Assembly (NCBI GenBank): GCA_963995525.1
Contig: OZ023214.1
Span: 56,752,841 to 56,816,840 of the forward strand
Source: Escarpia spicata
Lineage: Eukaryota > Annelida > Polychaeta > Sabellida > Siboglinidae
Length of the DNA stretch: 64,000 nucleotides
Reading direction: 5' to 3'
Shown one piece after another: positions 21,061 to 42,600 of this stretch. A model generated the notes under the pieces. That model was not told the origin of the DNA. It saw only the letters and a list, made by a program, of their open reading frames with translations, and did no database searches. How positions within the stretch are numbered: the first letter of the stretch is position 1; each line of letters begins with the position of its first letter. The position numbers and the translations under genes are program-made.

Positions 21061-21560
21061 GAATAATCAGGGCGGGACCAGTTGACAGTGTCAGTGAGTT
21101 GCCATGGCTTTGGTTTGTAATGAAGTAATGAAGTGCACATTCTAATAGCGTGCAGCAAAGGGCATACTTATGTTGTTTGCAAAATTACCTGTAGTTAGAC
21201 TTTACCGAAATTACAGCTTATCCCGTATCTGTAGTATTTATTTGTTGTCGGCGTTAATTGTTCTCGAGACTTGTCTCAAAACGAATGGCGCGTGTTGTGG
21301 TCATGTGATGTGACGATGCTACACGTGACGATAATCCCGTGGCGCCTCTGGTGGATAAAGTATCACTAATTGACATCCATTTAGTAGTGTTTGGCTACTG
21401 CGTTCTTTTTAAACCATTTTATGTCGGATCACTTCACGCATAATTGTTGTTTCATATTTCATTGGTGCTATGGCTTCACGGTGTAGTCTAGTATCGAATC
21501 TAGCAAAACAATGTATCTAAGTTATCCGGCAGATGCCTGCACTAATCTAATTTATTATTA
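21061..21560. other. No gene seen
   Basis: No supported feature. Confidence 0.5.
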
Positions 21561-21983
21561 GTAGCTCAGTGGCGTACCCAGAGGGGGTTTCCCGTTTCCC
21601 GGAACCCCCCAGAAATCCCACACTATATGGCAATGTACTGTGAATGATGACATGCAACAGCCAGCCTTACAGTGATACCCATTTGGAAACCACCTAACAT
21701 ATCAATCCTGGTTACGACCACTATATATATTAGGTAGTGTCAATGCGGCTGTACATAGTTCATATAAGAGCTATGTTTGTTGTTGTGATTCACAATATAA
21801 AAGCGAGAAGGGAGAGAGTTTACACTAACAAGATTGTTGTATTCACTGTTCCTCGCCTCATCGTGTGTAGTTATAGGATGTGATGTATATTGAAATCTGC
21901 TGCGCATTGCTATGTTTATGTTGAGAAAGAGAGTCACAGAATGCGGGTGGAAATGGCAAAGCCCTTTAATTACATGTAGTAAT
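21561..21983 (+). mobile_element. hAT-type non-autonomous repeat, copy 1
   Basis: The sequence CAGTGGCGTACCCAGAGGGGG at 21567 matches hAT-type termini. The whole segment is nearly identical to 25114-25538, with a few substitutions and small indels. Similarity ends after CCTTTAATTACA. No transposase is encoded. Confidence 0.7.
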
Positions 21984-23920: not shown

Positions 23921-24339
23921 TTATTGGGTAGAGTGCCTACGTAAATTAAAATATTAACCCATATTGGCTCTCAAATTATACTATAGTTCAAAATTGCATT
24001 ATGGCTCAAATTTCCCAGTATAACAAGTTCACGATACCGTTGAGAGATTTTACCTTCGCCATATTTGTTTACATCACAGTAAAAAATTAAGCCAAACTAG
24101 TTCCTTCGAGTGGGATCTATCCCCCCCCCCCCTACTAGAACTATTCTACCTCCGCGAGGGGCATTTACATCCTCCGAAACATCCTAGTCAACGGGCCTGC
24201 TAACAGTAAAATGTTGCATGAAAATTGGAATGTTATCAAACATCAGTATGTTCAATCTATATAATTAAATATATATATATATATATATGCTGTCACCGTT
24301 TCTAGTCGAAAGCGAACGGATAGTGAATTTTTACAATCC

Positions 24340-25073
24340 TATATCCTTAGGAATCTGACCTCAGAGGCGCAACATACTCTCACGATGCGAGACTCTTCAG
24401 ACTTTAACGTTTTATTCGCAAACAAGACCAGATTGATCTATTCTTCAACGGCAGCTTATAGCAAAAACTTAACTGGCCCCAATCTCGTGTTGCTTCGCTC
24501 TCCTCAATCTCCCACGAAACCCCCAATTCTAAGTAGTCATCCATCAGCCATCTAGTATTACTACGGCTAGATTACAATATAATTATTCCAATAAATGTAA
24601 AGAACTCAATCTAGTACTAACACCGAGCGTATTATAATGCGGGTATAGAATGCAATACCCAAATTTACACATACACATATATACACTATGAAAGGAAGGA
24701 TTAAACACAAACTTCTGTGACATCTCTCGGCTGATTTGAACACTTAGTAGTCACTGACAGCATACACCAGGTGGTGTTACTAGAGTAATTCTATAAATGA
24801 TTAAGTAGTAACTATATATCTTGGTTATCCATGACATCACAAAAATCATTAGGCAAACTCGTGAACCTGGACCGCCGAAGGGTAGGGCGGGAAAGTGATT
24901 TCAAATAAATAAGTGTTGAGTTCCGTACGAAAGACAGCTATAGTTCCAGATGATCTTAAAGTGACAGGGTTTGATTGCAAATTGTTAGTGCAGCCAATAT
25001 TAAACATGGTTTTAAGAGAGAAAAAAATCATGTTCCTGAGGTTATCTAACACAAAACGCAGGAGATTAACCAA
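24340..25073 (-). pseudogene. LINE 3' end interrupted by an insertion of about 440 bp
   Basis: On the minus strand, 25073-24849 encodes the closing LINE block (LRSSGTIAVFRTELNTYLFE). After the stop, the 3' UTR matches that of the copy at 6300-6395 as far as TTTTGTG near 24835. Similarity then resumes at about 24390 with TGTTGCGCCTCTGAGGTCAGATTCCTA. The intervening 24393-24830 is absent from the other copy, so it looks like a nested insertion of unknown type. Confidence 0.55.
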
Positions 25074-25113
25074 ATAAGACGGCTGTTGTGTAGAAAGGGC
25101 ACCATATGTAATA

Positions 25114-25538
25114 GTAGCTCAGTGGCGTACCCAGAGGGGGTTTCCCGTTTCCCGGAACCCCCCCAAGAAATCCCACACTATATGGCAATGTACTGTGAAT
25201 GATGACATGCAACAGCCAGCCTTACAGTGATACCCATTTGGAAACCACCTAACATATCAATCCTGGTTACGACCACTATATATATATTAGGTAGTGTCAA
25301 TGCGGCTGTACTTAGTTCATATAAGAGCTATGTTTGTTGTTGTGATTCACAATATAAAAGCGAGAAGGGAGAGGGTTTACACTAACAAGATTGTTGTATT
25401 CACTGTTCCTCGCCTCATCGTGTATAGTTATAGGATGTGATGTATATTGGAATCTGCTGCGCATTGCTATGTTTATGTTGAGAAAGAGAGTCACAGAATG
25501 CGGGTGGAAATGGCAAAGCCCTTTAATTACAGGTAGTA
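25114..25538 (+). mobile_element. hAT-type non-autonomous repeat, copy 2
   Basis: A near-identical direct copy of 21561-21983 that starts with the same TAGTAGCTCAGTGGCG. It sits only about 30 bp outside the left end of the large inverted element. Confidence 0.7.
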
Positions 25539-25639
25539 CATTAGTAACATAAATGGTAAAGACAAGACAATGGGCATTAGTAGTCTAGTAGGTTAATCAG
25601 CGTAGGCAACATCCGTTTTTCCATTGAGCAAGAGCAAGT

Positions 25640-26060
25640 GACGTCATATCTAGGTCAAGGTCAAGTACCCGGATGCAGGTAAAGGGAAATACTCCGATGT
25701 AGGTCAAGGTCAAAGGTCAAGGGGCCACCTGGCGGATAGGTCACGAACTAAAACAGCGCCACTTGGCGGACCCGTGGTGAACGGAAATAGTGCCGTCTGG
25801 CGGATAAGTGTTGAACTACATATGAGTACTGCCTAAATTCGTGCTTCTTAGTTTTGTTAAATGGTGCCACCAGGCGGATAGATCATGAACTACAAATGCC
25901 ACCCTGACGGATAAGTCGCGAAATAAATATGGGTCCTGCCTAAATTCGTGCGTCTTATTTATGAAAATTGACGCCCCTTGGTGGAAAGGTTACGAACTGA
26001 AAGAGAAGTACAAATAACTCCCCCAGACGGATGTCAATCAACCAAATATCGATACTGCTT
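25640..26060 (+). repeat. Subterminal degenerate repeats, left arm
   Basis: A degenerate motif of form GCCACCTGGCGGATAAGTCACGAACTA recurs about six times, separated by text such as CCTAAATTCGTGC. The block 36190-36540 mirrors it. Subterminal iterated motifs often serve as binding sites for the protein that moves an element; that role here is inference. Confidence 0.6.
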
Positions 26061-26512
26061 AAAATCGTGCCTCTTCTTTCTTTTTACTCTTTTTACCATA
26101 CAAAATAGGTCAAAGACGTCATTAAATAGGTCATTGCGCAAGCGCAATGGTGTCTTTTCTTATGTCTCATAGGTTGTCGACCATTTGTTTAGGTGTAGGC
26201 CTCTCCTAACCTATACATTTACAACCATAACATAGGTCCAATCCTGACGAATCGGCAGAGAACTAGTAAAATAAGTCAGTTACCATAGTTACCATACAGA
26301 TATATGACCTTCCTATCGCCCTGTTTGTAAATTATTGCCTATCAATGTCTCTTATTACTTGCATACGTCGACTGCTTCCTGTATTAACAAATAGGTGTTT
26401 GTAAATTTTTGTGTACTATTTCGTATCTGTCACCAGCTCCGGCAACCAAACCAACCATAAATCATCCACTCTACAGTCCGTACCTATAATTTCTACTCTC
26501 AGGTCTGTGCTT

Positions 26513-26623
26513 GTTCGGCACGCCCACGTGACTTTTTGGCTTATTCACTAACAATATACTCTACAATCCATAATCTTTCGGCACACCCACGTCACCTTTA
26601 TGTTCCGTCGAACTGTTATAAAA
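26513..26623 (+). promoter_or_regulatory. Shared promoter module P1, left arm
   Basis: GTTCGGCACGCCCACGTGAC at 26514-26533 contains a CACGTG E-box. A second, weaker copy (TTCGGCACACCCACGTCACC) lies at 26577-26598, and TATAAAA at 26617-26623. The finger-gene ATG follows at 26664. The same arrangement precedes the mirrored gene (35334-35444) and the unrelated gene at 33.1 kb. Confidence 0.65.
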
Positions 26624-26663
26624 GTCCTGCGTCTGTTTTTTATGGTTATATATATTTTGGAAG

Positions 26664-27610
26664 ATGAACAACATGACTAGTGATAACGTCCGGCAAGGGA
26701 TTTTGCTACCGAATGCGCAACCTTCTCCGGCTACGGGCCCACTCAACCTCTCGACCCCGACAATCAACCCGGACCAACGGCCAACGACCAGTTCAACGAC
26801 CAGTCCGACGACCAGTTCGACGACCAAACCAATTTCGTCTCTGTTATCAGTTCCGACAACCAATCCAACCATTAACCCGACGTCGTCACCTCCGACGAAG
26901 CGTCAGAAGCTTTTGTCGCGTTATGCCGGCTGCATGTGTGGCATGTGTGGCATGTGTGGCAGTACCTTCAGCTGTAAAGGGAGTTGGCACGTTCATGTGA
27001 AGCAGGGCTTCTGCCAAAGGAAGCGAGATAAACAGCGGCGGCGTAAAGAACAACTTGAAGAGATAATAGTAAGTTTCAATTTCTCATAGTGTTCAAATGC
27101 TATTCATGGCATTTTGTTAGAACATTTTCAAAAGCCTGATACAAAGAACTTAATATTATATTTCTCTTATACATATCAGTTGACAATACATTATTAAGCT
27201 CATCTCGTCACTGTTTCAGCGGCAAGAAAAGGAGCGCATTGCTGCAGCCGTCGCTACTTCTGCTTCTTCTCCACATGTCGCGGCAACGGGCAAACGATCA
27301 CAGTCACCGTCTGTCAACCGACCACCATCACCGTTGTACTCGAAGAGACAGCCTGATCCGACCACCGAACCATTCTACCAACGGCCATCGACCAGTCCGA
27401 CGACCAGTTCGATGACCAAACCAATTTCGTCACTGTCATCAGCGCCGTCAATCAATCCAACCATTAAGTCGACGTTGTCACCTACGACGAACCGTCGAAA
27501 GTTTTTGCCTCGTTATGCTTGCTAGGTGTGTGCCAGTACCTTCAGCTGTCAAGGCAGTTGGCACAGCTATGTGTATGGTTGGAAAGGTTGCTACCGACCA
27601 TGATTCCGTT
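26664..27610 (+). pseudogene. Two-exon C2HC zinc-finger gene, left-arm copy (stop in second finger)
   Basis: Exon 1 runs from the ATG at 26664 to 27068 (135 codons) and ends at the donor GTAAGT. Exon 2 starts at 27220 after CTGTTTCAG. The join is in phase and links QLEEII to RQEKERI. Exon 1 has a Ser/Thr/Pro-rich region (TSSTTSPTTSSTT), then a basic patch (TKRQKL), a finger with CGSTFSCKGSWHVHVKQGFC, and a Lys/Arg-rich tail. Exon 2 has another Pro/Ser-rich stretch (a likely NLS at GKRSQS) and a second finger. There, TGG has become TAG at 27523-27525, just before VCASTF. The mirrored copy lacks this stop. The protein resembles a small nuclear DNA-binding factor, but I do not recognise the family. 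Confidence 0.6.
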
Positions 27611-27660
27611 TACTTGCCCACTATGTAACGACGGGACGCCTTGATCAATGTTCAGTCTCT

Positions 27661-27727
27661 GGTTCTTACAGTTATGGAGCGCGACATGTAAATTCGTTTG
27701 TGTTGTACATAGAATCAGATTGCAAAC
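27661..27727 (+). terminator. 3' module, copy a (degenerate poly(A) signal)
   Basis: Reads TTATGGAGCGCGACATGTAA and then GTTTGTGTTGTACATAGAATC. In better copies the last part is CACGAATAAAAGG, so AATAAA is mutated here. It follows the left finger gene. Confidence 0.5.
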
Positions 27728-27759
27728 TTTCACTAACAATCGTGCAAACAAACAATACA

Positions 27760-28170
27760 GGAAGGTATTGTATCACGGCGACGTCGAATGCGGAGAGCGC
27801 ATCAAAGCTGCAAAACACGCACACTTGGCAAAACGAAAAAGCAAACAGATTGGAGAGACGATATCTGGTTGGAACGATGTCCGTGTTCACTAGATGCAAC
27901 ATTTGCTCCGCAAAGTTCAAGGCATCAAAGGATTTGAGAGCCGTGTTGTTGGCAACCGGAAATGTTGAACAGGTGGAGCGTTTACCATCGAAAGAGGGCT
28001 TTTGGGAACTTGGACGTGGCTACAAAAATGGTCGAAACACTCTCGGAAAACTGTTGAGTAGTATCCGTGACAATCACTTGTATACACTACGTTGTGTACT
28101 ATCAAGAGTTGGTTGCAAGACTATCTATCAGAGCAGTGAAGAAACAGTGTCCACTTTCTTGTTCTCGTAG
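27760..28170 (+). pseudogene. Degraded finger-like gene piece with C-terminal block B
   Basis: An ATG near 27876 opens a frame beginning MSVFTRCNICSAKFKASKDL. It has the CxxC and F of the element's finger type but lacks the final His and Cys. It continues into a C-terminal block (LPSKEGFWELGRGYKNGRNT) that recurs at 28780-28980 and, mirrored, at 33870-34076. That block aligns loosely with the C-terminus of the protein at 31.6 kb (SKHWRNTM). It probably derives from a paralogue of that gene. Confidence 0.4.
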
Positions 28171-28230
28171 TTATGGAGTGTGACATGTAAATACGTTTGT
28201 GTTGTACTTGAATAACAGTTGCAAACCTCA
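28161..28230 (+). terminator. 3' module, copy b
   Basis: Same module: TTATGGAGTGTGACATGTAA, then TGTTGTACTTGAATAACAG, with a mutated poly(A) signal. Confidence 0.5.
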
Positions 28231-28444
28231 TTTTGTGTCTTTTTTATAGTGTAATGAAAAGCATGTTGGGAACCTTACTAATAGCCTTACACAAACTGGC
28301 AAAGTCGACCTGTTTGAGGGAAAAGGAACTCGGAATAGACGTTTTACTGCTACAACGGACGAGATATCGCAAGAGACTACGGATGAGATATACCGATCTA
28401 CCGCACTGAAACGCTAAAAGCGAGGAGGAGGAGGGATAGAGGTG

Positions 28445-28690
28445 GACGGGTTATTGCGTGACATCCCTCGTCTTTCAGGAAAATAGACGGTTTATTGCGT
28501 CAAATCCATCCTCTTTCAGACAAATAGACGGGTTATTGCGTGACATCCCTCCTCTTTCAGGCACATATGCGGGTTATCGCGTGGCATCCCCTCTCTTTCA
28601 GGCAAATAGACGAGTTATCGCGTCAAATTCCACCAAAATGGAGCAAATAGACGGTTTATCGCGTGAGATTTCACCGATTCGACGGAATTC
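28445..28690. repeat. 41-bp iterons (promoter module P2, left)
   Basis: Six units start at 28445, 28486, 28527, 28568, 28609 and 28650, exactly 41 bp apart. Each holds GACGGGTTATTGCGTG followed by CTCTTTCAGGCAAATA-type text. A shared downstream sequence (AATTCCACAGCAATAGGCAG) follows. The TATA that follows other copies is changed here (GATAGAAAAC). Confidence 0.85.
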
Positions 28691-28754
28691 CACAGCAATA
28701 GGCAGATAGAAAACGAGTTCTACAAATTGTTGGGGTTAATCTCGCGAAAATTTA

Positions 28755-29345
28755 AACAAATTGTAGGAAATGCTGAACTGGTGGAGCGTTTACCATCGAA
28801 AGAGGGCTTTTGGGAACTTGGACGTGGTTACAAAAATGGTCGAAACACTCTCGGAAAACTATCCGTGACAATCACTTGTAAACACTACGTTGTGTACTAT
28901 CAAGAGTTGATTGCGAGACTCTCTATCAGAGCAGTGACGAAACAGTGTCCACTCTCTTGTTCTTGCAGTTATGGAGCGTGACATGTAAATACGTTTGTGT
29001 TGTACACGAATAAAAGGTGCAAACCCCATCTTGAGTCTTTTTCATAGTGTAATGCAAAGCATACGGTGGAATCCTTACTAATAGTCTTACACTTCACAAG
29101 TAAAGAGACTATCCGTATTGTCAACATCAAGGATACCAAGGGCATCGACCATAGGGATAAGCATAGCAACATATATAGAGACAGATATAGAGAAAGCCAC
29201 AGAGAAAGCCATAGAACGAAATACCAAAGAGTTAGACCAACGAGTGAGAAGAAACAAACTTGTCGGACAAACGAAACACCAAATTGCCTATCAATGTCTC
29301 TTATTAATTGCATACGTCGACTGCTTCCTGTATTAACATATAGGT
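28755..29345 (+). other. Block B, left copy (C-terminal exon and downstream short frames)
   Basis: Contains the GFWELGRGYKNGRNT block, a 3' module, then a segment with two overlapping open frames. One of 72 codons (from about 29118, no ATG) is helix-like and charged: IEKATEKAIERNTKELDQRV, ending ...AYVDCFLY. Both frames are preserved in the mirrored copy at 33453-33785, so neither can be favoured. It ends in a module (CTATCAATGTCTCTTATTA) found five times in the element. Confidence 0.4.
28961..29030 (+). terminator. 3' module, copy c (intact AATAAA)
   Basis: TTATGGAGCGTGACATGTAA, then TTGTACACGAATAAAAGGTG. AATAAA is at 29009-29014. Confidence 0.6.
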
Positions 29346-29352
29346 GCTTATG

Positions 29353-29466
29353 GGATAGAGATGGACGGGTTATTGCGTGACATCCCTTCTCTTCCAGGCA
29401 AATAGACGGTTTATCGCGTGAGATTTCACCGATTTGACGGAATTCCACTGCAATAGGCAGGTATAA
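29353..29466 (+). promoter_or_regulatory. Promoter module P2: 41-bp iterons plus TATA
   Basis: Two iteron units (GACGGGTTATTGCGTG at 29354, GACGGTTTATCGCGTG near 29405) are followed by AATTCCACTGCAATAGGCAGG and TATAAAA at about 29462-29468. The ATG of the finger gene lies 82 bases further on (29550). Confidence 0.55.
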
Positions 29467-29549
29467 AACGAGTTGTACAAATCAAACTTAGACCGCCGAG
29501 TTCCAAGAGACATTCCGTTCTTTACATTTGAACAGTAAACCCCTACACC

Positions 29550-29822
29550 ATGAGCCTATCGACTCGTCTACCAGCTGCCAACAAGCCCACACCAGTATCA
29601 CGGGCGGCCTTCCAGTGCCACGATTGTAAGAGACATTTCACACGGAAAGATAGCTGGAAATGACACAGTGCCCACAGTTGCTGTAGGCCATTGGCAAACA
29701 CTACGTTGACAAGCACTACGTTGTTCAATTCCCTTGTCCCGGCGACCATTACGAGACCTGTGTCGGTGGCCTCAGCGACAAGCTCGACATTCCTAGGCCA
29801 TTTTCTCCATGTTAAAAGATAG
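29550..29822 (+). pseudogene. Single C2HC-finger gene with early stop
   Basis: The ATG at 29550 (ACACCATGAG) starts a frame with a Pro/Ala-rich leader (LPAANKPTPVSRAAFQ) and a finger reading CHDCKRHFTRKDSWK. It is cut by TGA at 29661-29663, one codon before the expected His; past the stop the frame continues with HSAHSC, completing C-x2-C-x12-H-x4-C. The frame ends at TAG 29820-29822. It has its own TATA and iteron promoter upstream. It is a paralogue of the finger genes in the arms. Confidence 0.5.
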
Positions 29823-30215
29823 GAAGTTTACCCATGTTAAACGATAAGCCATTTTCTCCATGTTAAAGGATGGGAAGTTCCCCATATTAAAAGATAGGAA
29901 GTTTCCCCATGTTAAAGGATAGGAAGTTTCCCCATGTTAAAAAAATTGGAAGTTTCCCCATGTTAAAGGATAGGGAAATTTGCCCCATGTTAGAAGATAG
30001 GTCATTTTCTTCATGTTAAAGGATAGGGACATTTTCCCCATGTTAGAAGATATGTAATTTTCTCCATGTTAAAGCATAGGAGGTTCCCCCATGTTAAACG
30101 ATAGGAAGTTTTCCTATGTTAAAAGATAGGAGGTTGTCCCCATGTTAAAGGATAGGCCATTTTCTCCATGTTAAAGGATAGGAAGTTTCCCCATGTTAAA
30201 AGATAGGGCATTTTC
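29795..30215. repeat. Minisatellite of 24-29 bp, about 16 copies
   Basis: The core is CCATGTTAAAGGATAGGAAGTTTC, with length variants that alternate AAGTTTCCC and GCCATTTTCTC. The TAG ending the gene upstream lies in the first unit. One isolated unit lies near 33380. Confidence 0.9.
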
Positions 30216-30229
30216 AACGTCAACTCAAT

Positions 30230-30630
30230 GTATCGTAAAGTCATATGACGACATTTTGAATTTGAGGTGCCAAACATCACATACCTTCATGTCAAGAGAC
30301 GATCATCTGTTCGGATTCACGTCCAACAAGTTGACCATAGGACTCGTATGAGGTATCGCTTCTTTTAACGGAAAACATATGCATATGAAGCAGCCGTCTT
30401 TACAACATAACAATTCCATATTTACAAATAGTGCGAGCGACCAAATACGATACGACCTTCTCGAGAGTCGAAAAATGAAAGACCAGAATCGTTGGAAGCA
30501 CGGTATATACACTAGTTTTCGGCGTCATCTCATTTGCATAACCAATCAGACCGAACGTACATCACGTGACTTCCCTTAACACAAAAACTGTGCACGTTCG
30601 TGAGACAGATGACATGGGACGGCCCCAACG
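30230..30630. other. Central segment without recognised gene
   Basis: A plus-strand ATG at 30379 opens 66 codons beginning MHMKQPSLQHNN, unrecognised. No finger motif was seen here. Confidence 0.3.
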
Positions 30631-30639
30631 AATAACGCC

Positions 30640-30840
30640 ATCTACCGGCCATGACAGATCTCTATTCGTCGACACACTTCCGGGAATGGTGGAACCATAG
30701 AGGCCGCCATGACAGGTCGCCATGACAGTCAAATAACGTCCGGTACGACGTTACTTCCGACGTAATGGCCCCTAGTAGAGGCCGCCATGACAGTCAAGTA
30801 ACTTCCGGTTTGACATCACTTCCGGCGTAGTGGATAATTG
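30640..30840. repeat. Direct duplication in element centre
   Basis: GAGGCCGCCATGACAGTCAA followed by TAACTTCCGGT occurs at 30778. A shuffled version is at 30701-30768 with an extra GGTCGCCATGACAG. GCGCCATCTAGCGG-like text lies near 30642 and 30862. Confidence 0.7.
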
Positions 30841-30914
30841 GAGTACTACCCCACACGATGGCGCCATCTAGCGGGTAAATGTATATAATTAGGGTTACAT
30901 AGAGAACAAAGTTG

Positions 30915-30995
30915 TGGTTAATCTCGCGATAATTTATACAACCACCTTGGTCGAAACACCTTGGTGGTTGTTTAAATTTTCGCGAGATTAACCCC
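30915..30995. repeat. Perfect-to-near-perfect hairpin with 35-bp arms
   Basis: The arm GGTTAATCTCGCGATAATTT followed by ATACAACCACCTTGG pairs with CCAAGGTGGTTGTTTAAATT ... CGCGAGATTAACC across a loop of about 8 bases (TCGAAACA). Mismatches are few. GTTAATCTCGCGAAAATTTAAAC also occurs singly at 28733-28756. Confidence 0.8.
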
Positions 30996-31020
30996 AACAA
31001 TTTGTACAATTCGTTTTCTA

Positions 31021-31250
31021 CCTGCCTATTGCAGTGGAATTCCGTCGAATCGGTGAAATCTCACGCGATAAACCGTCTATTTGCTCCATTTTTGTGGAAT
31101 TTGACGCGATAACTCGTCTATTTGCCTGAAAGAGGGGGATGGCACGCGATAACCCGCATATGTGCCTGAAAGAGGAGGGATTTGACGAAATAACCCGTCT
31201 ATTTGCCTGAAAGATGAGAGATGTCACGCAATAACCCGTCCATCTCTATC
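31021..31250 (-). repeat. 41-bp iterons (promoter module P2, right)
   Basis: Mirror of 28445-28690 on the minus strand, with five to six units of ACGGGTTATNGCGTG and the same following AATAGGCAGGTAGAAAAC. The TATA position reads TAGAAAA. Confidence 0.8.
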
Positions 31251-31460
31251 CCTCCTCCTCCTCCTCGCTTTTAGCGTTTCAGCGCGGTAGATCGGTAAAT
31301 CTCATCAGTAGTTTCGTGCGATATCTCGTCCGTTGTCTCAGTAACCCGTGTATTCCGAGTTTCTTGTCCCTCAAAGAGGTCAACTTTGCTTGTTTGTGTA
31401 AGGCTATTAGTAAGGTTCCCAACATGCTTTTCGTTACACCATAAAAAAGACACAAAATGA

Positions 31461-31528
31461 GGTTTGCAACTTTTATTCATGTACAACACAAACGTATTTA
31501 CATGTCACACTCCATAACTACAAGAACC
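31461..31528 (-). terminator. 3' module, copy d (intact AATAAA)
   Basis: The minus strand reads TTATGGAGTGTGACATGTAA, then TGTTGTACATGAATAAAAG. AATAAA is at 31477-31472, about 115 bases after the stop of the upstream gene, a fitting cleavage signal for it. Confidence 0.65.
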
Positions 31529-31592
31529 AGAGACTAGACATTGATACAGAGTCTTGCAAAGTTTAATCGTATACAAGACAAAAGAAAGTTCT

Positions 31593-33130
31593 TTACAGGT
31601 CACCTTCCATTACTGTCAGAACCATATGTTTCATAGTGTTTCGCCAGTGTTTCGAAACGGCGTCTTGCAACAAAGTATTGATATTACACAACTGTTTGAA
31701 TGTCACGTCGGATAGCTTCACACCTGCGTCTAACAAAACACTCAAACAGTCTTTCACCACTGCAGTTGAATTAATGGCCTCCACAGCATCATCAAAGTGC
31801 ATGCACATTTGAATGTCATCAGATAACATACAATCGTGATGAAATTGACTAGGATGGTCTATCTCGCAACCACGGCATTGTCGCCTTGAGATTTCAAAGA
31901 TGGTACATGCTATGTGGCATGCAAGCGTCTTCTTCATTTCGGTCACAGGGAAATCAATGGTAAAGTTCCGACCAGCAAAGTCAGGAGCGGATGTTGCGAC
32001 GTTGGCAGAATGGGTAGAAGTTGTGACATTGACAGCTTGGGTAGTTGTGACGTTCGTTAGGAACGGAAGTTGATGTCGATGATGTTCCGTTGTCGTTAAT
32101 CGTTTCTGTTGATACAGGGACCATTCGTTGCCGCTTTGATGGTAGCGGACCTTCAATGTAGTTCTGCAAGAATATTTCAATAACATTTAGAAGATTGCAT
32201 GGGAATAGTATACCGTTGCTAGACTACGGTGATATAAGGACAGGTAAGAAACAATGATAAGAAGTGACATGATAGGAAGTAAGGTGACAAGTTGTATGAT
32301 CATAAATATAAATTGTCGACAAAAATTACCCGTGGACGCATATAGGGAGTTAAGACGTTGTCAGATGTTGATATGAAGGAAAACGTAGGGGAGCCCTAAT
32401 CTTGAAAGCAAAGACGTGACAGAATATTGTGTACCCGGATGTTAGCAGGTAATATACGAGTCCAACCATATAGGAAATAATAAAACGGGGCGAAGTTTTA
32501 GCGGAAGTATAGACACAGTGGACACCCTTATAGCGGAAGGTATGGGGACACCCTCTTAGGGAAAGTATAGGCACGGGGGACGAGATTTTAGGTGAAAGTA
32601 TATAGTAAAACAATATAAAGTATGACTCACCACAAGCGCGTCCAGCTCGGCGTCCTCGGCCGCCCTCTTCCGGCGGGCACAACTGCCGCCGGTGACGTGG
32701 TGCTTGCTATTATTTTTTCGTGTGAACGACGACCCACAGTCCGGGCAGGTGAAGAGTCTTTGCGATGGTGGTAGTTGTCTCGGAGTCGGTAGAGACTCCT
32801 CATCGGCAGCGACCGTTCGAACCATGATATACATGTCAGAGGCAACGTAACCGTGTCGTTCGCATTGCAAATGTCCCCTATCGTTAACAATCATACGCTT
32901 CTTGCAGTATCTGCATCCGATGTAGAAGGGAGTATGCTTGTATACTTTGTCGATAAGGAGACCTCTGACCTTGATAACAGGGTCGGCACTGACCGTTGAT
33001 TCTAGAGTTGGCATGTTCACGACTTCTGGTTCCGTTGGCGGAGAAGGACGGATGGTCACCGGCATGATGGGTCGGCTCGTCGGCTCGTCCTCATCGCTCG
33101 AGTCTGCTTCAACGTGATGTTATTAGCCAT
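31593..33130 (-). CDS. Two-exon protein: RPA-like zinc ribbon, C2HC finger, DHPSQ Cys/His motif
   Basis: Minus strand. Exon 1 is best read from the ATG at 33065 to 32631, with donor GTGAGT. The in-frame text above it (ADSSDEDEP) suggests an original start at the ATG 33130 with one frameshift. Intron 32630-32164 ends TTCTTGCAG; exon 2 runs 32163-31593. Exon 1 has IKVRGLLIDKVY and a ribbon CRYCKK ... CERHG, recalling the C-terminal zinc ribbon and OB fold of RPA1. A C2HC finger follows (CPDCGSSFTRKNNSKHH ... C), then a basic/acidic tail. Exon 2 opens with an NLS-like LPSKRQR. A frameshift in a Ser/Thr-rich stretch leads to RRQCRGCEIDHPSQFHHDC and a helical C-terminus. TATATAAA lies at 33184-33177. 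The ribbon suggests single-strand DNA or nucleic acid binding (inference); the DHPSQ motif is unassigned. Confidence 0.6.
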
Positions 33131-33176
33131 GGTGTCGTCGTGATACGAATGACGGTTTGACTGGTAGAGCTCCGCG

Positions 33177-33224
33177 TTTATATAGTTAGTGAATGTGTCG
33201 AAAGGTCACGTGGGCGTGCCGAAC
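33177..33224 (-). promoter_or_regulatory. Shared promoter module P1 of the RPA-like gene
   Basis: The minus strand reads GTTCGGCACGCCCACGTGAC, then CTTTCGACACATTCACTAAC, then TATATAAA. It matches the left-arm P1 (CACGTGACTTTTTGGCTTATTCACTAAC) closely, although the genes that follow are different. The ATG at 33130 lies about 47 bases past the TATA. Confidence 0.7.
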
Positions 33225-33499
33225 GAGTACGGACCTCAGAGTAGAAAAATGCCTGCGCGGACTGCAGAGTAGAATATACTCACGGACTGTATAGTAGATC
33301 AAACTTGAACTGTGAATACAAGTTCAAACCAGTTTGCAAACAGGAAACAAAGTGAATTAAGTACTAACAAAATATATTGATCAATGTTAAAAGATAGGGA
33401 GATGTTGATTTTGTTGATAATGATGTCCGAAAGAATGTTACATGTTCAGGAATCACTTCACGCCTGCTATTAATAACATACATAGATATGCAAAACATG

Positions 33500-34080
33500 A
33501 TAAGCACCTATTTGGTACTACAGGAAGCAGTCGACGTATGCAATTAATAAGATACATTGATAGGTAATTTGGTGTTTCGTTTGTCCGACAAGTTTGTTTC
33601 TTCTCACTCGTTGGTCTAACTCTTTGGTATTTCGTTCTATGGCTTTCTCTGTGGCTTTCTCTATGTCTGTCTCTATGTATGTTGCTATGCTTATCCCTAT
33701 GGTCGATGCCCTTGGTATCCTTGATGTTGACAATACGGATAGTCTCTTTAGTTGTGAAGTGTAAGATTATTAGTAAGGATTCCAACGTATGCTTTGCATT
33801 ACACTATGAAAAAGACACAAGATGAGGTTTGCACCTTTTATTCGTGTACAACACAAACGTATTTACATGTCACGCTCCATAACTGCAAGAACAAGAAAGT
33901 GGACACTGTTTCGTCACTGCTCTGATAGAGAGTCTTGCAACCAACTCTTGATAGTACACAACGTAGTGTCTACAAGTGATTGTCACGGATATTTTTCCGA
34001 GAGTGTTTCGACCATTTTTGTAGCCACGTCCAAGTTCCCAAAAGCCCTCTTTCGATGGTAAACACTCCACCAGCATTTCC
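33500..34080 (-). other. Block B, right copy
   Basis: Mirror of 28755-29345: GFWELGRGYKNGRNT, a 3' module, then the paired overlapping frames with IEKATEKAIERNTKELDQRV. It is highly similar to the left copy. Confidence 0.5.
33822..33896 (-). terminator. 3' module, copy e (intact AATAAA)
   Basis: The minus strand reads TTATGGAGCGTGACATGTAA, then TTGTACACGAATAAAAGGTG. AATAAA is at 33842-33837. Confidence 0.6.
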
Positions 34081-34255
34081 GGTTGCCAACAATATGGCTC
34101 TCAAATCCTTTGATGCTTTGAACTTTGCGAGGAGCAAATGTTGCATCTAGTGAACACGGACATCGTTCCAACCAGATATCGTCTCTCCAATCTGTTTGCT
34201 TTTTCGTTTTGCCCAGTGTGCGTGTTTTGCAGCTGTGATGCACGATTGTTAGTGA

Positions 34256-34325
34256 AAGTTTGCAATCTGATTCTATGTACAACACAAACGTATTTACATG
34301 TCGCGCTCCATAACTGTAAGAACCA
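34256..34325 (-). terminator. 3' module, copy f (degenerate)
   Basis: Follows the right-arm finger gene; TTGTACATAGAATCAG replaces the AATAAA region, as in copy a. Confidence 0.5.
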
Positions 34326-34392
34326 GAGACTGAACATTGATCAAAGCGTCCCGTCGTGAAATGGGTCTTACATAGTGGGCAAGTAAACGGAA

Positions 34393-35293
34393 TCATGATC
34401 GGTAGCAACCTTTCCAACCATACACATGGCTGTGCCAACTGCCTTGACAGCTGAAGGTACTGGCACACACCCAGCAGGCATAACGAGGCAAAATTTGGAG
34501 GTGACAACGTCGAGTTAGTGGATGAATTGATTGACGGCGCTGATGACAGAGACGAAATTGGTTTGTCGGACTGGTCGATGGCCGTTGGTAGAATGGTTCG
34601 GTGGTCGGATCAGGCTGTCTCTTCGAGTACAACGGTGATGGTGGTCGGTTGACAGACGGTGACTGTGATCGTTTGCCCGTTGCCGCGACATGTGGAGAAG
34701 AAGCAGAAGTAGCGACGGCTGCAGCAATGCGCTCCTTTTCTTGCCACTGAAACAATGACGAGATGAGCTTAATAATGTATTGTCAACTGATATGTATAAG
34801 ATAAATATAATATTAAGTTCTTTGTATCAGGCTTTTGATAATGTTCTAACAAAATGCCATGAATAGCATTTGAACACTATGAGAAATTGAAACTTACTAT
34901 TATCTCTTCAAGTTGTTCTTTACGCCGCCGCTGCTTATCTCGCTTCCTTTGGCAGTAGCCCTGCATCACATGAACGTTCCAACTCCATTTACAGCTGAAG
35001 GTACTGCCACACATGCCACACATGCGGCAGGCATAATGGGGCAAAAGCTTCCGACGCTTCGTCAGAGGTGACGACGTCGGGTTAATGGTTGGATTGGTTG
35101 TCGGAACTGATGACAGAGACGACATTGGTTTGGTCGTCGAACTGGTCGTCGGACTGGTCGTTGAACTGGTCGTTGGCCGTTGGTCCGGGTTGATTGTCGG
35201 GGTCGAGAGGTTGAGTGGGCCCGTAGCCGGAGAAGGTTGCGCATTCGGTAGCAAAATCCCTTGCCGGACGTTATCACTAGTCATGTTGTTCAT
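34393..35293 (-). CDS. Two-exon C2HC zinc-finger protein, right-arm copy (open)
   Basis: Exon 1 runs 35293-34898 (132 codons, donor GTAAGT) and exon 2 runs 34746-34393 (acceptor TTGTTTCAG, phase 0), giving about 250 codons. It starts MNNMTSDNVRQGILLP, then has Thr/Ser/Pro-rich linkers and finger 1 (CGSTFSCKWSWNVHVMQGYC) with a Lys/Arg tail. Exon 2 has a second linker and finger 2 (CASTFSCQGSWHSHVYGWKGC). Compared with the left copy it keeps TGG where the left has TAG, but has lost part of the exon 2 linker through compensating indels. A second ATG overlaps the stop (TCATGA) and opens a frame with CPLCKTHF, perhaps a further finger. Probably nuclear DNA binding; target and role unknown. Confidence 0.6.
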
Positions 35294-35333
35294 CTTCCAA
35301 AATATATATAACCATAAAAAACAGACGCAGGAC

Positions 35334-35444
35334 TTTTATAACAGTTCGACGGAACATAAAGGTGACGTGGGTGTGCCGAAAGATTATGGATTGTAGAGTA
35401 TATTGTTAGTGAATAAGCCAAAAAGTCACGTGGGCGTGCCGAAC
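35334..35444 (-). promoter_or_regulatory. Shared promoter module P1, right arm
   Basis: Mirror of 26513-26623. The CACGTG block is at 35424-35444, the weaker copy near 35359-35382, and TATAAAA at 35340-35334, followed by the ATG at 35293. Confidence 0.65.
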
Positions 35445-35543
35445 AAGCACAGACCTGAGAGTAGAAATTATAGGTACGGACTGTAGAGTGGATGATTTAT
35501 GGTTGGTTTGGTTGCCGGAGCTGGTGACAGATACGAAATAGTA

Positions 35544-36066
35544 CACAAAAATTTACAAACACCTATTTGTTAATACAGGAAGCAGTCGACGTATGCAAGT
35601 AATAAGAGACATTGATAGGCAATAATTTACAAACAGGGCGATAGGAAGGTCATATATCTGTATGGTAACTATGGTAACTGACTTATTTTACTAGTTCTCT
35701 GCCGATTCGTCAGGATTGGACCTATGTTATGGTTGTAAATGTATAGGTTAGGAGAGGCCTACACCTAAACAAATGGTCGACAACCTATGAGACATAAGAA
35801 AAGACACAAAAATTGACAAACACCTATTTGTTAATACAGGAAGCAATCGACGTATGGAAGTAATAAGAGACAATGGTAGGCAAAACTTTACAAACAGGGC
35901 GATAAGAAGGTCGTATATCTGTATGGTAACCAGAAATGACATCATTTGACTTATTTTACTAGTTCTCTGCCGATTCGTCAGGATTGGACCTATTTTATGG
36001 TTGTAAATGTATAGGTTAGGAGAGGCATACACCTAAACAAATGGTCGACAACCTATTAGACATAAG
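35544..36066. repeat. Tandem duplication of 261 bp in the right arm
   Basis: CACAAAAATT ... ACACCTATTTGTTAATACAG begins at 35544 and again at 35805, and both copies run through CGATTCGTCAGGATTGGACC to ATAAGAAAAG. The left arm has one copy (about 26155-26430). The duplication therefore arose after the arms formed. Confidence 0.85.
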
Positions 36067-36189
36067 AAAAGTCACCATTGCGCAGTCGCAATGACCTATT
36101 TAATGACGTCTTTGACCTATTTTTATAGTAAAAAGAGTAAAAAGAAAGAAGAGGCACGATTTTAAGCAGTATCGTTGTTTGGTTAATTG

Positions 36190-36540
36190 ATATGCATCAG
36201 GGGGAGTTATTTGTACTTCTCTTTCAGTTCGTAACCTTTTTACGAAGGAGCGTCAATTTTCATAAATAAGACGCACGAATTTAGACAGGACCCATATTTA
36301 GTTCACGACTTATCAGTCAGGGGTGGTGTTCGTAATTCATGATCTATCCTCCAGGGAGCGCCATTTGACAAAACTAAGAAGCACGAATTTAGGCAGTACT
36401 CATATGTAGTTCAACACTTATCTGGTACTATTTTAGTTCACGATGTACCCGCCAGGTGATGCGGTTTAGTTCGTGATCTATCCGCCAGGCGGCCCATTTG
36501 ATCTTTGACCTTGACCTACATCCGGGTACTTGACCTTGAC
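36190..36540 (-). repeat. Subterminal degenerate repeats, right arm
   Basis: Mirror of 25640-26060 with the same CGCCAGGCGG/GATCTATCCGCC motif recurring. Spacing differs by indels. Confidence 0.55.
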
Positions 36541-36768
36541 CTAGATATGAAGTCGCTCTTGCTCAACGGAAAAACGGATGTTGCCTACGCTGATTAACCT
36601 ACTAGACTACTGGCATTGCCGTCGACTTAGATAGCAAAAGGCAATTTCCCTGACAAGTGTAGATGAGTCGTTCATATCTGCCAATGGAGAATGCCAGTAA
36701 TTAACTGTCTAAGCGGAATAAATGTGGGGGACTTATTTGATGGCGCCCAACGTATATATGGTATAACA

Positions 36769-36835
36769 CGCACATACACACACGCGCACACTCGGCCACA
36801 CACACGCACGCAAGCACGCAAGCACGCACCAGCCA
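36769..36835. repeat. CA/GCAC-rich microsatellite
   Basis: Interrupted CACA, CGCACA and GCACGCAA repeats. Confidence 0.85.
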
Positions 36836-37009
36836 ATCGAAGCTGTATAAGACTACAACAAAGAAACACGCGTTTCTTGTTGCCTGTCGCTGTTTTGTTG
36901 TGGCGGCAACCAAGGCAATAAACCGTGACGTAAAGAAACGTCCGCATCATGCAAAATCACGTAAAATCATGTCATGTTCACGATAATTTTATTTGCACCC
37001 TTAGCCAAT

Positions 37010-37700
37010 AAATTTAACTCTAAACATCGCCTAGCCTAGACTAAGTTGCTAAAAAAAACGATCCCTTGCCAACCAAAAATTATTGATACTATATAGGAGA
37101 AAATAACAAATTTTGCATGTTTGTTGCTACCATACTAAACCAATATTAACATTACGCCATCTGGCGGAATATTACATTCGTAAAAAGGCCCTAATTTATG
37201 AACCATTCATCCTACATCAACGTATGATGTATCTAGAGATTCGAAATGAGGAGTAGCAGCTATTAGAGTATGTATTTTGTGCGTAACATCAACCATATTG
37301 ATGTTATTTGCGAAAAACTTTAAAATCATATTATTCTAATGCTAATTTCCCTCATTATTTTCAGCCATAGCCGATCAATTTGGGACTAAACATCGCCTAA
37401 CCTAGACTGAATTGCAGAAGAAACACCAAGCTCCTTCCGAACAAAATATAAATCATATAATTGATAGTATATGGGAGAAAGTCGACTTATTTTCCTCATT
37501 GGTGTGTATGGTGGGGTATTTTTAAGAAAAAACCGTCCATTACACATCAAGGTGTAATGTCTCTGTGGATTCAAAATAAGGAGTACCAACTGTTGTGTTG
37601 TGTGTAGTTTGTGCGTTAAGGCAGCCATATTGGTGTTGTTTACGAAAACGTTTAAAAATCATGTCATTTTAATTGTGTTTCTCCTTACCAAACATACAAA
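37010..37700. repeat. Imperfect tandem duplication, period about 365 bp
   Basis: CTAAACATCGCCTAGCCTAGACT near 37021 and CTAAACATCGCCTAACCTAGACT near 37386 open two diverged copies. Both continue through ATTGATACTATATAGGAG/ATTGATAGTATATGGGAG, a GATTC(G/A)AAAT(G/A)AGGAGTA block and GTGCGT. No coding frame was seen. Confidence 0.8.
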
Positions 37701-38329
37701 TTATGAATGCAATACGGCTTGATTTTACCCTGCTTATATAATTTATTATGCAAAAGCATGTTTTGCATTTTAAAATAAATACGCAATCAAAATAAAACAA
37801 AGCCAAATCTATTCTCACGTAAAGTAGTGATAAATCACGAAGCAACTTCCACATTCCTTACGGTTGTTTTACCAATGATGACGTACTTTTCCCGCCATAT
37901 CCTAGCAGGATCTAATTCGCCGACTGCAGAAAACATTGTAGATCCTCTCCGTGAGTCAGGTTGCAATGCTAAATATGTCTTCCCTTCCTATGAACATGAA
38001 GCGTAAGCCTCCTTTTGCAAAGTTAATTTCACAGCGCTCAAGAAACGCTTAAAATGTGTTCTCAGTCTGGACGATTATGCACCTGTGAGTCCATCCTTCC
38101 TCACTCATATACGTTCATTCCGACAAAGAATCGGCAGCTCTCCACTCAACCACCTGCGAAAAGGGTAATTGACAACTGAGTTTGTTCGATGAAGAAAAGT
38201 AGTCATATTCTTTAAGAGATATATATATATATATATATCAGTTATAGAAGACTGATTGGTTGGCTGTATGTTTTCAAAGGCTTGATAACGCAGACACGTT
38301 AAAAAAACCAAATGCGCGCTCGCACACGC

Positions 38330-39610: not shown

Positions 39611-42600
39611 AATATAATATAATAATAATGTTTTTATTACAGACAAAAGTCCATATGTACATACAATACAAATAAATAAAAAATTAATAAAATCCAAAGG
39701 TAGAGACACACATGAAGTAAATAGATGGTTAATAAAAGATATATATAAAATGTGTATTCAACTTTAAGTATACAATTGGATAGTCCGATATTTAAACATA
39801 GGACGTCTAAAATGTATATCGGTATAAAAATAATTCACAAAAAGTTTATTTTCAGACAATATATATGGATGAACGCATACGTTCATTAAACGATTTAACA
39901 CAGTTTGTAGCAAACAAAATTATAAAACTGTTGTTATAGGCAACAGTAATTCCTTTCAAACACTGTTTTTTTTAATTTACACCAAAGACTTGAGGTGTAC
40001 ATAGTACCACAGTAAGAGATAAGTAGGTAAGTTTTAATGTTAGAGCTGCAACGGCGACATTTTGGTGCTAAGACGTTGGCCTGAGCATATAGGCATCTTT
40101 TCTGTCTGGCAATGTCGTCATCGTCAGTAAGATTATTGTTAATTATATGACCCAGATATGCATTTAATAGTGTGAGGTAACGGACGATTATTGAGAGTGA
40201 CAGGATGAATATTGTCCATGTCCTGAGGTTTGTTGTCAATAACCATACATAAACATTTCGCCATACTTGGCACAACAATATGTTAGTTTTCTCAACTCAG
40301 AAGTACAAGGTGAAAAAATACAAAGAACTTCTGCATGCATCAAATTATTCATTATGGTGCCTGCATAAAGACATCCAATTTGTAATTTGTTAAGATTTAC
40401 ACTTAAGTCATCCATGTACACATTAAAAAGATAGGGAGAAAGGATTCCACATTGTTTGACACCATTTGAAACAGTACAAAATCTAGAAAAGCTCTGACAC
40501 CATTTGACAATGAATTTTTGGGTACTGTACCAGTGATACAGAATGCGCACAATGCAAGCAGGACAACCACGGTCAATTAGTTTAGTGAATAGCTTGCTAT
40601 GGTTCAATTTGTCGAAGGCCTTGGAGGCATCCAACATAGTGACGTACATAGAAGAGCCATTTGCTATGTAGTGTCGAAAAAGTTCTTTAAATAGAAATAT
40701 GAACATCTCAGTTGAGTGATGCTTTTTAAATCCAAACTGGTTGGCAAACGTTGTGAAGAAAATGATAACCCTTGATAATATTAAAGATTCAAATAATTTA
40801 CTAGCAATTGTTGCAAGAGCAATAGGTCTGTAGTTATTGTTGTCAGACAAATCGCCAGCTTTGTTTTTAATTATTGGAGCTATTATTGTGATAATCACAG
40901 CATCAGGCAAAAACCCATGAATTAACAAGCTGCTGAATAGCAGTGACATATAAACATGAAGTTTTCATTAGCATACTTAAAATGTTCATTACTCATACAG
41001 TCATAAGCAGGAGCCAACATTGCTAGGATTTGGCAACTTGGCATTGTTCATTTGTTTGATATCTTTCCAGAAGTTTTTAAAGTCATTACTACTTAATTTT
41101 GACGCAAGTCGTTCGGCTTTAAGGGTTCAGCATTTTTTTTACAGTCTTTTATTATGTTTAAATTGAGCACTTTTAATTTTCATTATGTCTTACAAAGGAC
41201 CATGTCGGGGACTCCCAGCAGACCGCCACATGAGAAAAGACTCTCTAGCAACCTGGTGGGAGTCTCTGCCCATATCATTCCAACCAAGAACGGCATGCTT
41301 CGAAGACATGTTATGCGTCTTAGTAGTTATTACTTCAGAGGCATCCTTGAGTGAAGTAATAATGTCGTTATAAAATTTGCATAGCAGTATCTGATAGGCT
41401 TCATCATTACAATTCGGGTCGGTACATCGTAAACATCATGAGGTACATCAATGGCAGATAAAAGCACACTAGTTTGAGTGTAATAGTTGTGAAGGTCTTG
41501 GTGAGTGGCAGCCCCCCACATAGGACAAGGCTGTCGACTTTGCTCCTGAGTGGATGCTTCAGAAGTAGGTAATAAGTTGACAGATATGGTAAAGCATAAA
41601 GTTAGGTAGTCAGACGAGACACAATCATAATTAACTACCACATCAGAGATTGATGAGTGACTGGAGTGAGTGCTGACCACATGGTCCAGCCAGCTTCTTG
41701 AGCCATGATGAGCATCACTGACATAAGTAAAAGCACCGGAAGGGAGACACTTTATGTCACTTGGAATGAGGTGACATTCATTAATAAAAGCATTGAGAAG
41801 TAACGAAAACAGACTGGGCGTGTTAATTTCCGCATTAAAATCCCCAATGATGAATATGTCAGCTGTTTCAAATGAATCGCTTATAGCCTGTATCTTGCCT
41901 AAAAAAGCTTGATATTCATCGGAATTATCATCACTCTGATACGGTAAATATACGTTAAGAATCAGAATAGTGGCATTAGACGTGATGATTTTCAGACCAA
42001 GGAGTCTTTTTTCATCGTCATAAATTATAGGTTCAATAAATGGGTCGAGTGAACGTCTCCATAAAAAGCAAAGCCCGCCATGAGGGCGTCCACTCAAACC
42101 ATCAAAAAAATCAATAGAACTAATACCTCTGGCATTGAAATCAGGGTGAACAGAATTGAGATAGGAAAGGCAATATTTGGAGAGCCATTGTTCTTGCACT
42201 GCAAGATTATCACAGGATTTTAAAATGTTAAGCACGTCGTAAGCACTGTTCCGTATGCTTCTGGCAATAAATGAAGCAATACGGAGTTGACAGTTTACAG
42301 GTGAGTCGAATCTGTTGTTGTGTGCTTCCGAAACTAGGCGGAAAGTACCGTCCAATCTTTGTTCCAGCAGGCCAGAGATTGGCATCATAGAGTAAGTTCG
42401 GTTTAGCAGTGTCCACACAAAGTTTGAAGGAAGAATAAAAGTCATGTTTAGTTGGTAAGCGTTCACGTGAGCATTTCATGTTCAAAGTAGTTGCCACATA
42501 AGTAGACATTTCGGCACAAGTTGTATATGCGTGAAATCCTGTTAAGGAGTATTCAGCAGATATAACCGTCAAGATGTAATCTCATTGTTGTGTAGAAAGT

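What the first reader, a model, noticed from the sequence alone, without database searches (positions are those of the whole stretch)
25565..36632. An 11-kb inverted element with mirrored zinc-finger genes and no recognised mobility enzyme
Seen directly: both ends mirror each other, the mirror runs through regulatory blocks and intron-containing genes, and an unpaired segment carries another gene type. The encoded proteins are small nuclear-looking C2HC-finger proteins and an RPA-ribbon protein. I know of no described transposon class with this gene set. It may move using a partner's enzyme or derive from a DNA virus (inference).
Basis: partly seen in the sequence, partly recalled or inferred. 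Interest (0 to 1): 0.9.

Follow-up and report, generated by a model that had tools for sequence, protein, structure and literature searches.

The report
Mirror-image satellite of Maverick virus-transposons
This 11-kb mirror-image DNA element carries the end signature and side genes of virus-like Maverick transposons but no recognisable copying, inserting or shell gene of theirs, so it likely spreads by borrowing those of fuller relatives found in the same genome.

Summary
The element runs from 25579 to 36611, is flanked by a perfect 6-bp target-site duplication, and ends AGTAGT...ACTACT: the published Maverick/Polinton signature. Its terminus occurs at 71 sites in the host genome, control 0; 15 pairs face inward, 0 outward. 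Of 14 pairs read, 8 have exact duplications and 5 match at 5/6. Maverick polymerase, integrase, capsid, protease or any transposase was not recognised among its 43 ORFs. Its genes are Maverick side genes: the RPA-ribbon gene lies within 8 kb of 23 of 63 proteases of one Maverick lineage (0.14 pairs expected) and 0 of 87 of another. One relative, L018, combines the arm genes, an AGTAGT end, a protease and a capsid gene. Mirrored finger genes recur: 25 inward pairs, 0 outward. So it is a gene-bearing, non-autonomous Maverick derivative, likely mobilised in trans; the partner's integrase was not found. Not a new transposon class; the mirrored, intron-bearing arms look like a new variant.

The parts
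25573..25578 (.). left target-site duplication GGCATT
   Evidence: sequence
36612..36617 (.). right target-site duplication GGCATT
   Evidence: sequence
25579..36611 (.). the whole element; ends 5'-AGTAGT...ACTACT-3'
   Evidence: same terminus (up to 3 mismatches) at 71 places in the host genome, control 0
25579..29351 (+). left arm of the inverted repeat
   Evidence: identity profile
33500..36611 (-). right arm of the inverted repeat
   Evidence: identity profile
26664..27068 (+). left C2HC-finger gene, exon 1 (predicted)
   Evidence: 160 matches in the host genome for its relative in L020
27220..27525 (+). left C2HC-finger gene, exon 2 (predicted; ends before its second finger)
34898..35293 (-). 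right C2HC-finger gene, exon 1 (predicted)
34393..34746 (-). right C2HC-finger gene, exon 2 (predicted; second finger kept)
27774..28068 (+). broken NADAR-domain gene piece, left arm (two frames)
   Evidence: Pfam NADAR 2.1e-8, 35.0 bits, just under the cut-off 35.1; tblastn with the NADAR protein of L022
28766..28861 (+). second NADAR fragment, left arm
33990..34245 (-). broken NADAR-domain gene piece, right arm
29532..29798 (+). start of the finger/KKMALVDP protein gene that is open over 326 aa in L020 and lies next to the protease in L018; broken here
29794..30215 (.). central tandem repeat, period about 25/51 bp
31593..32186 (-). 197-aa ORF (p197) of unknown family; relatives open in L024, L025 and (part) L028, one stop in L026
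   Evidence: no Pfam family and no database homolog
32556..33119 (-). RPA-type zinc ribbon fused to a C2HC finger; upstream part of the same gene at 33107-33202
   Evidence: RPA C-terminal domain above cut-off in the relative L019
35543..36075 (.). 268-bp direct duplication in the right arm

Best explanation
The element has Maverick ends, a Maverick-type 6-bp target-site duplication and Maverick side genes but no recognisable polymerase, integrase, protease or capsid gene, so it is most likely a non-autonomous Maverick derivative moved in trans by the proteins of fuller Mavericks in the same genome. Shown: ends, duplications, gene content, and repeated occurrence of the mirrored layout. Inferred: the integrase of lineage-A Mavericks recognises the shared terminus and joins it to 6-bp staggered cuts, after protein-primed copying of the linear DNA. 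Inferred: the mirror arose when one end, with its side genes, was copied onto the other during protein-primed replication, where displaced strands can pair end to end; this makes a very long terminal repeat that carries genes. Inferred: the kept genes (C2HC finger, RPA ribbon, p197) serve the element's own replication or expression, since finger genes of different insertions show dN/dS of 0.40-0.72.
For: Ends and duplications: against the published signature. Link to fuller Mavericks: L018 holds arm, finger, NADAR and KKMALVDP genes, an AGTAGT end, a protease and a capsid frame; of 6 scanned homologs of that capsid frame one is above the Pfam DJR-like cut-off. The RPA gene lies within 8 kb of 23 of 63 lineage-A proteases, 0.14 pairs expected, and of 0 of 87 of lineage B. 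Finger genes lie within 6 kb of 6 of 63 lineage-A proteases, 0.26 pairs expected within 15 kb. The terminus lies within 20 kb of 2 lineage-A proteases (0.17 expected) and within 8 kb of 3 RPA genes (0.16 expected); one protease-side terminus matches the window's first 40 bp at 37 positions, the other at 30. Mirrored layout: 25 inward finger pairs and 0 outward; 16 inward RPA pairs and 0 outward. Own enzymes not found. Selection.
Against: No movement was observed and trans-mobilisation was not tested. No integrase or polymerase of lineage A was found: L018 and its neighbour L033 (20 kb together) show none with the L032 proteins. L032-type integrases are abundant (121 of 121 scored at 95-100%) but 0 lie within 15 kb of the 63 lineage-A proteases and 0 within 20 kb of the 71 termini, 0.32 expected. 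L018 itself is damaged (2 stops in its KKMALVDP gene; LINE-like frames beside it). No terminal repeat was found for L022/L032. One of 14 end pairs lacks the duplication at the expected place; L020, outside the 14, matches at 4 of 6; no AGTAGT end was found for the palindromes L014 and L009/L010. Between the two window arms the finger gene has dN/dS 1.08, so this copy may be decaying. The outer 400 bp of the arms are less alike (87-91%) than most inner blocks, which simple end-to-end copying does not predict.
Confidence: 0.8

Rival explanations
1. An independent DNA transposon whose own, unrecognised transposase is one of the kept proteins (p197 or the C2HC-finger protein).
For: p197 and the finger protein are kept as open frames in several copies, p197 has no relative in the databases searched, and no lineage-A integrase was found.
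Against: End motif and duplication length are those of Mavericks. The finger and RPA genes co-locate with Maverick proteases. No catalytic domain was found. Short members with the same kind of ends exist that are too small for these genes, for example the 1.1-kb pair at C2:53501418, whose flanks match at 5 of 6.
Confidence: 0.07
2. A dead remnant: one autonomous Maverick inserted here and later lost its middle and was inverted in place; it never moved in this form.
For: NADAR and KKMALVDP genes are broken in the window; window arm dN/dS is 1.08.
Against: Inward finger pairs without a scored protease between them occur at 25 places. The element is flanked by an exact duplication at its present ends. 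Deletions in place would not explain the repeated loss of the same genes. Joints of the deletions were not compared.
Confidence: 0.12
3. A foldback-type element of the P superfamily (Galileo-like), with long repetitive inverted arms.
For: Long, internally repetitive inverted arms.
Against: Foldback and Galileo elements make longer duplications and carry or use a P-type transposase (recalled); here the duplication is 6 bp and no such domain was found.
Confidence: 0.005
4. An assembly artefact that made a false palindrome.
For: Palindromes are a known assembly problem (general knowledge).
Against: Arms differ in a graded way, the flanks carry a duplication, and mirrored gene pairs recur in many other places.
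Confidence: 0.005

Closest known systems
Maverick/Polinton elements of animals (PMC8097293; abstract, section 7 and passages seen)
   Same: 6-bp target-site duplication, (AGT)2//(ACT)2 ends, inverted terminal repeats, side genes near the ends; Maverick protease, capsid, integrase and polymerase genes occur elsewhere in the same genome
   Different: No core gene was recognised in the window element. Its inverted repeat (about 3 to 3.8 kb per arm) exceeds the 46-1447 bp reported for intact vertebrate Mavericks and carries a gene with a predicted intron, where the conserved ORFs of intact vertebrate Mavericks are described as intronless
Defective adenovirus genomes with symmetric ends (SYREC-type; recalled; not among the 10 papers listed)
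   Same: A linear, protein-primed genome family in which one end block is duplicated in inverted form at the other end
   Different: Those are laboratory virus by-products (recalled); here the symmetric form sits in chromosomes many times, with target-site duplications where ends were read
Polinton-like viruses of cryptophytes (PMC12220804; search listing and passages seen)
   Same: Inserted viral elements with terminal repeats; that study accepted repeats of 100 bp to 8 kb
   Different: Whole-word counts of NADAR, RPA, replication protein A and non-autonomous in its main text are 0
Galileo/Foldback elements (PMC3573991; search listing and abstract start only)
   Same: Long, internally repetitive inverted arms
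   Different: P-superfamily transposase (its abstract start) and another duplication length (recalled); different genes

Membership tests
Maverick/Polinton | 6-bp target-site duplication | tested here: met
   window exact; of 14 pairs read 8 exact, 5 with 5 of 6, 1 with 1 of 6; L020 apart from these 4 of 6; of 110 cross-pair controls (11 pairs) none had 6 of 6 and one had 5
Maverick/Polinton | (AGT)2//(ACT)2 end motif with inverted terminal repeats | tested here: met
   motif from PMC8097293
[quoted passage not shown]
   tblastn with two pieces of the L032 polymerase: no hit at 1e-3 in the window; Pfam on the 43 ORFs
Maverick/Polinton | retroviral-type (rve) integrase gene in the element | tested here: not met
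   tblastn with the L032 integrase: no hit at 1e-3; Pfam
Maverick/Polinton | capsid, protease and ATPase genes in the element | tested here: not met
   tblastn with L018 and L032/L022 protease, capsid and putative ATPase frames: no hit at 1e-3 in the window; the ATPase frames were named from recall
Non-autonomous derivative of Mavericks | shares ends and side genes with copies that carry Maverick core genes | tested here: met
   protease and capsid only: L018; RPA gene beside 23 of 63 lineage-A proteases, terminus beside 2
Non-autonomous derivative of Mavericks | a partner copy with integrase and the same ends | tested here: inconclusive
   none found in L018/L033; 121 L032-type integrases lie near no terminus or lineage-A protease; that search was filled by one lineage
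Non-autonomous derivative of Mavericks | mobilised by Maverick proteins | not testable with these tools
   needs an assay; inferred from ends and duplications only
Foldback/Galileo (P superfamily) | P-type transposase and longer duplication | tested here: not met
   no such domain; duplication 6 bp; the family's own values are recalled
Helitron | no terminal inverted repeat and no target-site duplication; RepHel protein (recalled) | tested here: not met
   both repeat and duplication present; no helicase or Rep domain

The most novel reading that the evidence does not exclude
A self-standing, gene-bearing satellite of a virus-like Maverick: symmetric genomes keep their own DNA-binding, single-strand-binding and finger genes in long mirrored ends, and live off the integrase, polymerase and perhaps the shell of Mavericks in the same cells, possibly dampening them as satellites do to helper viruses.
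Probability: 0.15. Interest if true: 0.85.

Novelty: new variant of a known kind. Interest (0 to 1): 0.6.

Why it matters
Mavericks sit between transposons and DNA viruses. Phrase searches of the held library for non-autonomous, nonautonomous or defective Polintons/Mavericks returned no paper with those words, and Polinton with NADAR gave none. A genome with at least 25 inward-facing mirrored gene pairs and abundant protease- and integrase-bearing Mavericks gives a natural system to ask how protein-primed elements make symmetric defective genomes, whether these act as satellites, and what RPA-like and NADAR proteins do for them.

Tried and rejected
C3:19.56-19.60 Mb looked like a 35-kb element from its arm hits, but is an inverted duplication of a host gene region with short arm pieces. 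The nearest copy by terminus, C5:25718663-25732811, carries no family genes, only a Gypsy-like insertion. Structure prediction of p197 was useless (mean pLDDT 34) and was not searched further. Protein database searches with p197 and with the L032 RPA protein found nothing at 1e-3. IMG/VR scans with the polymerase and the capsid alignment found no relative. Maverick with NADAR in the papers gave 15 listings; by their titles they are unrelated, and in the one on transposable elements, which I opened by passages, NADAR is an author's surname. PHROGs gave nothing useful. No terminal repeat could be found for L022/L032. An integrase search meant to find the lineage-A partner returned only L032-type integrases. 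The species was not identified.
Full report
What is there. The window lies in a 1.06-Gb genome at C11:56752841-56816840. Self-comparison shows inverted arms at 25579-29351 and 36611-33500. Alignment of the two ends gives limits of 25579 and 36611, ends 5'-AGTAGTCTAGTAGGTTAATCAGCGTAGGC, and the 6-bp duplication GGCATT on both sides. Over ungapped columns the arms are 91% identical in the outer 400 bp and 96-100% in the next 2 kb, then lower.

Other copies. The left end gives 140 matches in the host genome (40 of 2375 candidates scored). The 24-base terminus with up to 3 mismatches occurs at 71 sites, against 0 for the reversed control. Within 30 kb of each other 15 neighbouring pairs face inward, 0 outward, 2 are tandem; the inward ones span 1.1 to 28.8 kb, the window included. 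Both ends of 14 of the 15 were read: 8 have exact 6-bp duplications, 5 match at 5 of 6, and 1 at 1 of 6. In that one (C15:27956600) the left 6-mer GGCCCT recurs 9 bp further out on the right. L020, found by another end form, matches at 4 of 6. Of 110 cross-pair controls one reached 5 of 6 and none 6 of 6.

Class. Vertebrate Mavericks have 6-bp duplications and most often (AGT)2//(ACT)2 ends (PMC8097293; passages, abstract, section 7). The match of end motif, end symmetry and duplication length points to Maverick-type insertion. The same section gives terminal repeats of 46-1447 bp (mean 402) and side regions flanking the core modules. A passage describes the conserved ORFs of intact elements as intronless.

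Mavericks in this genome. L032 has an rve integrase with a chromodomain (both above the Pfam cut-offs), a family B polymerase match just below its cut-off (24.3 against 25.8 bits), and an RPA C-terminal domain protein above cut-off; neighbouring L022 has a NADAR domain above cut-off. L018 has an adenovirus-type protease (weak Pfam match, 15.8 bits against 21.3), 53% identical to the L032 frame that I take for the protease, and a 312-aa frame with 686 database homologs; of 6 homologs scanned one passes the Pfam DJR-like cut-off, so I call it the major capsid protein. The names minor capsid, ATPase and core protein used in my notes for other frames are recalled, not tested. The L032 integrase has 121 scored matches of 3218 candidates, all listed at 95-100% identity, so this lineage has many near-identical copies.

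The link. L018 carries, from its AGTAGT end inward, the window's arm DNA, the finger gene, the start of the RPA gene, a NADAR piece, the KKMALVDP protein gene, the protease and the capsid gene. Genome-wide, the L018 protease has 150 scored matches of 1871 candidates: 63 at 73-100% identity (lineage A) and 87 at 54-57% (lineage B). The RPA gene (150 of 153 matches listed) lies within 8 kb of 23 of 63 lineage-A proteases, 0.14 pairs expected by uniform placement, and of 0 of 87 lineage-B ones. In 20 of the 26 pairs it is upstream on the same strand, in 6 downstream on the other strand. The finger gene (147 places after merging 150 listed rows of 160 matches) lies within 6 kb of 6 of 63 lineage-A proteases and 0 of 87 of lineage B; at 15 kb 0.26 pairs are expected for A, and 1 of 87 is found for B against 0.36 expected. 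The terminus is within 20 kb of 2 lineage-A proteases (0.17 expected) and within 8 kb of 3 RPA genes (0.16 expected). The two protease-side termini match the window's first 40 bp at 37 and 30 positions. These searches score only the best candidates, so counts are lower bounds.

The mirror recurs. Among neighbouring finger genes within 20 kb, 25 pairs face inward, 0 outward, 3 are tandem; none of the 25 encloses one of the 150 scored proteases. Among RPA genes within 25 kb, 16 pairs face inward, 0 outward, 2 are tandem; 3 of the 16 enclose a lineage-A protease, so mirrored ends are not limited to gutted copies. Four palindromes were profiled (window, L020, L014, L009/L010): the outer 400 bp are 87-91% identical, and inner blocks mostly 91-100%; blocks at the inner ends of the window and L014 arms fall lower. 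For L014 and L009/L010 the outer limit is only approximate, since no AGTAGT end was found.

Genes of the window element. The 43 ORFs of at least 70 aa inside the element (of 52 listed for 24000-38000) were scanned; nothing like a transposase was found. A weak sub-threshold recombinase-ribbon match (18.8 bits against 25.3) overlaps the C2HC finger of the RPA ORF. The finger gene is present in both arms with a predicted 151-bp intron; donor and acceptor sites are seen in 6 of 8 gene copies examined, not in L018 and L023. Finger-gene dN/dS is 0.40-0.72 in the 27 comparisons other than the two window arms with each other, which give 1.08 with dS 0.029. Ten p197 comparisons give 0.48-0.97. The NADAR and KKMALVDP pieces are broken; the RPA ORF keeps the ribbon but ends in a C2HC finger, and L024 and L025 have frames of the same build.

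How it likely works. Shared ends and 6-bp duplications imply that a Maverick integrase inserted it (inferred). A protein-primed polymerase would copy it (inferred). The mirrored arms are most simply explained by one end replacing the other during such copying, as recalled for symmetric defective adenoviruses; the lower identity of the outermost 400 bp is not explained by this. Whether the kept genes act for the element, the partner or neither is untested.

Against this reading. No integrase or polymerase of lineage A was found: L018 with its neighbour L033 shows none, and of the 121 L032-type integrases none lies within 15 kb of a lineage-A protease or within 20 kb of a terminus, 0.32 expected for the latter. 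That search was filled by one lineage, so it does not show absence. The lineage-A link rests on protease, capsid, RPA and finger genes. L018 is itself damaged. L022/L032 showed no terminal repeat. No movement was shown.

Novelty. Phrase searches for non-autonomous, nonautonomous or defective Polinton/Maverick found no such wording, Polinton plus NADAR none, and Maverick plus NADAR 15 listings unrelated by title. NADAR domains are reported in Gypsy elements of Ectocarpus and in oyster Tx1 LINEs (PMC12477816, passages). The library misses most subscription papers, so earlier descriptions may exist. I rate it a new variant of a known kind.

Noticed in passing
L022:7680-8012 and L032:3-9010: A fuller Maverick that encodes a NADAR domain, an rve integrase with a chromodomain, a family B polymerase (match just under cut-off) and an RPA C-terminal domain protein; 121 scored integrases of this type in the genome are 95-100% identical, which suggests a recent burst.
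   Followed up: partly
L020:8430-8882: A SERTA-motif protein (30.3 bits, cut-off 25) in the right half of a mirrored copy: SERTA is a motif of cell-cycle regulators (recalled), here as an apparent side gene.
   Followed up: no
L009:9207-9860 and L009:4280-4912: A palindromic copy on C13 holds a tyrosine-recombinase domain (Pfam Phage_integrase, 39.8 bits) with a mirrored second copy of the frame, likely a second element inside the first.
   Followed up: no
window 26664-27068, 29532-29798, 32556-33119; L032 polymerase frame: The same C-x2-C...H...C finger type appears by eye in the arm gene, the KKMALVDP protein and the RPA gene, and as a sub-threshold Pfam C2HC_ASCIZ match in the Maverick polymerase frame.
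   Followed up: partly
window 21556-21981 and 25109-25538: A 430-bp direct repeat, 97.7% identical, one copy ending 40 bp left of the element.
   Followed up: no
window 47225-52227 and 1590-2504: Two tandem arrays with a 54-bp unit (92.5 and 16.9 copies), both leaving long frames open.
   Followed up: no
G000:C10:54175457-54211053: Four finger genes in the order + + - -: a nested palindrome of about 35 kb.
   Followed up: no
G000, protease matches of lineage B: A second protease lineage with many copies of nearly equal score (54-57% to lineage A).
   Followed up: no
window 9751-11711, 14692-17296, 40239-40964: Reverse-transcriptase-like frames of LINE type (recognised by eye).
   Followed up: no
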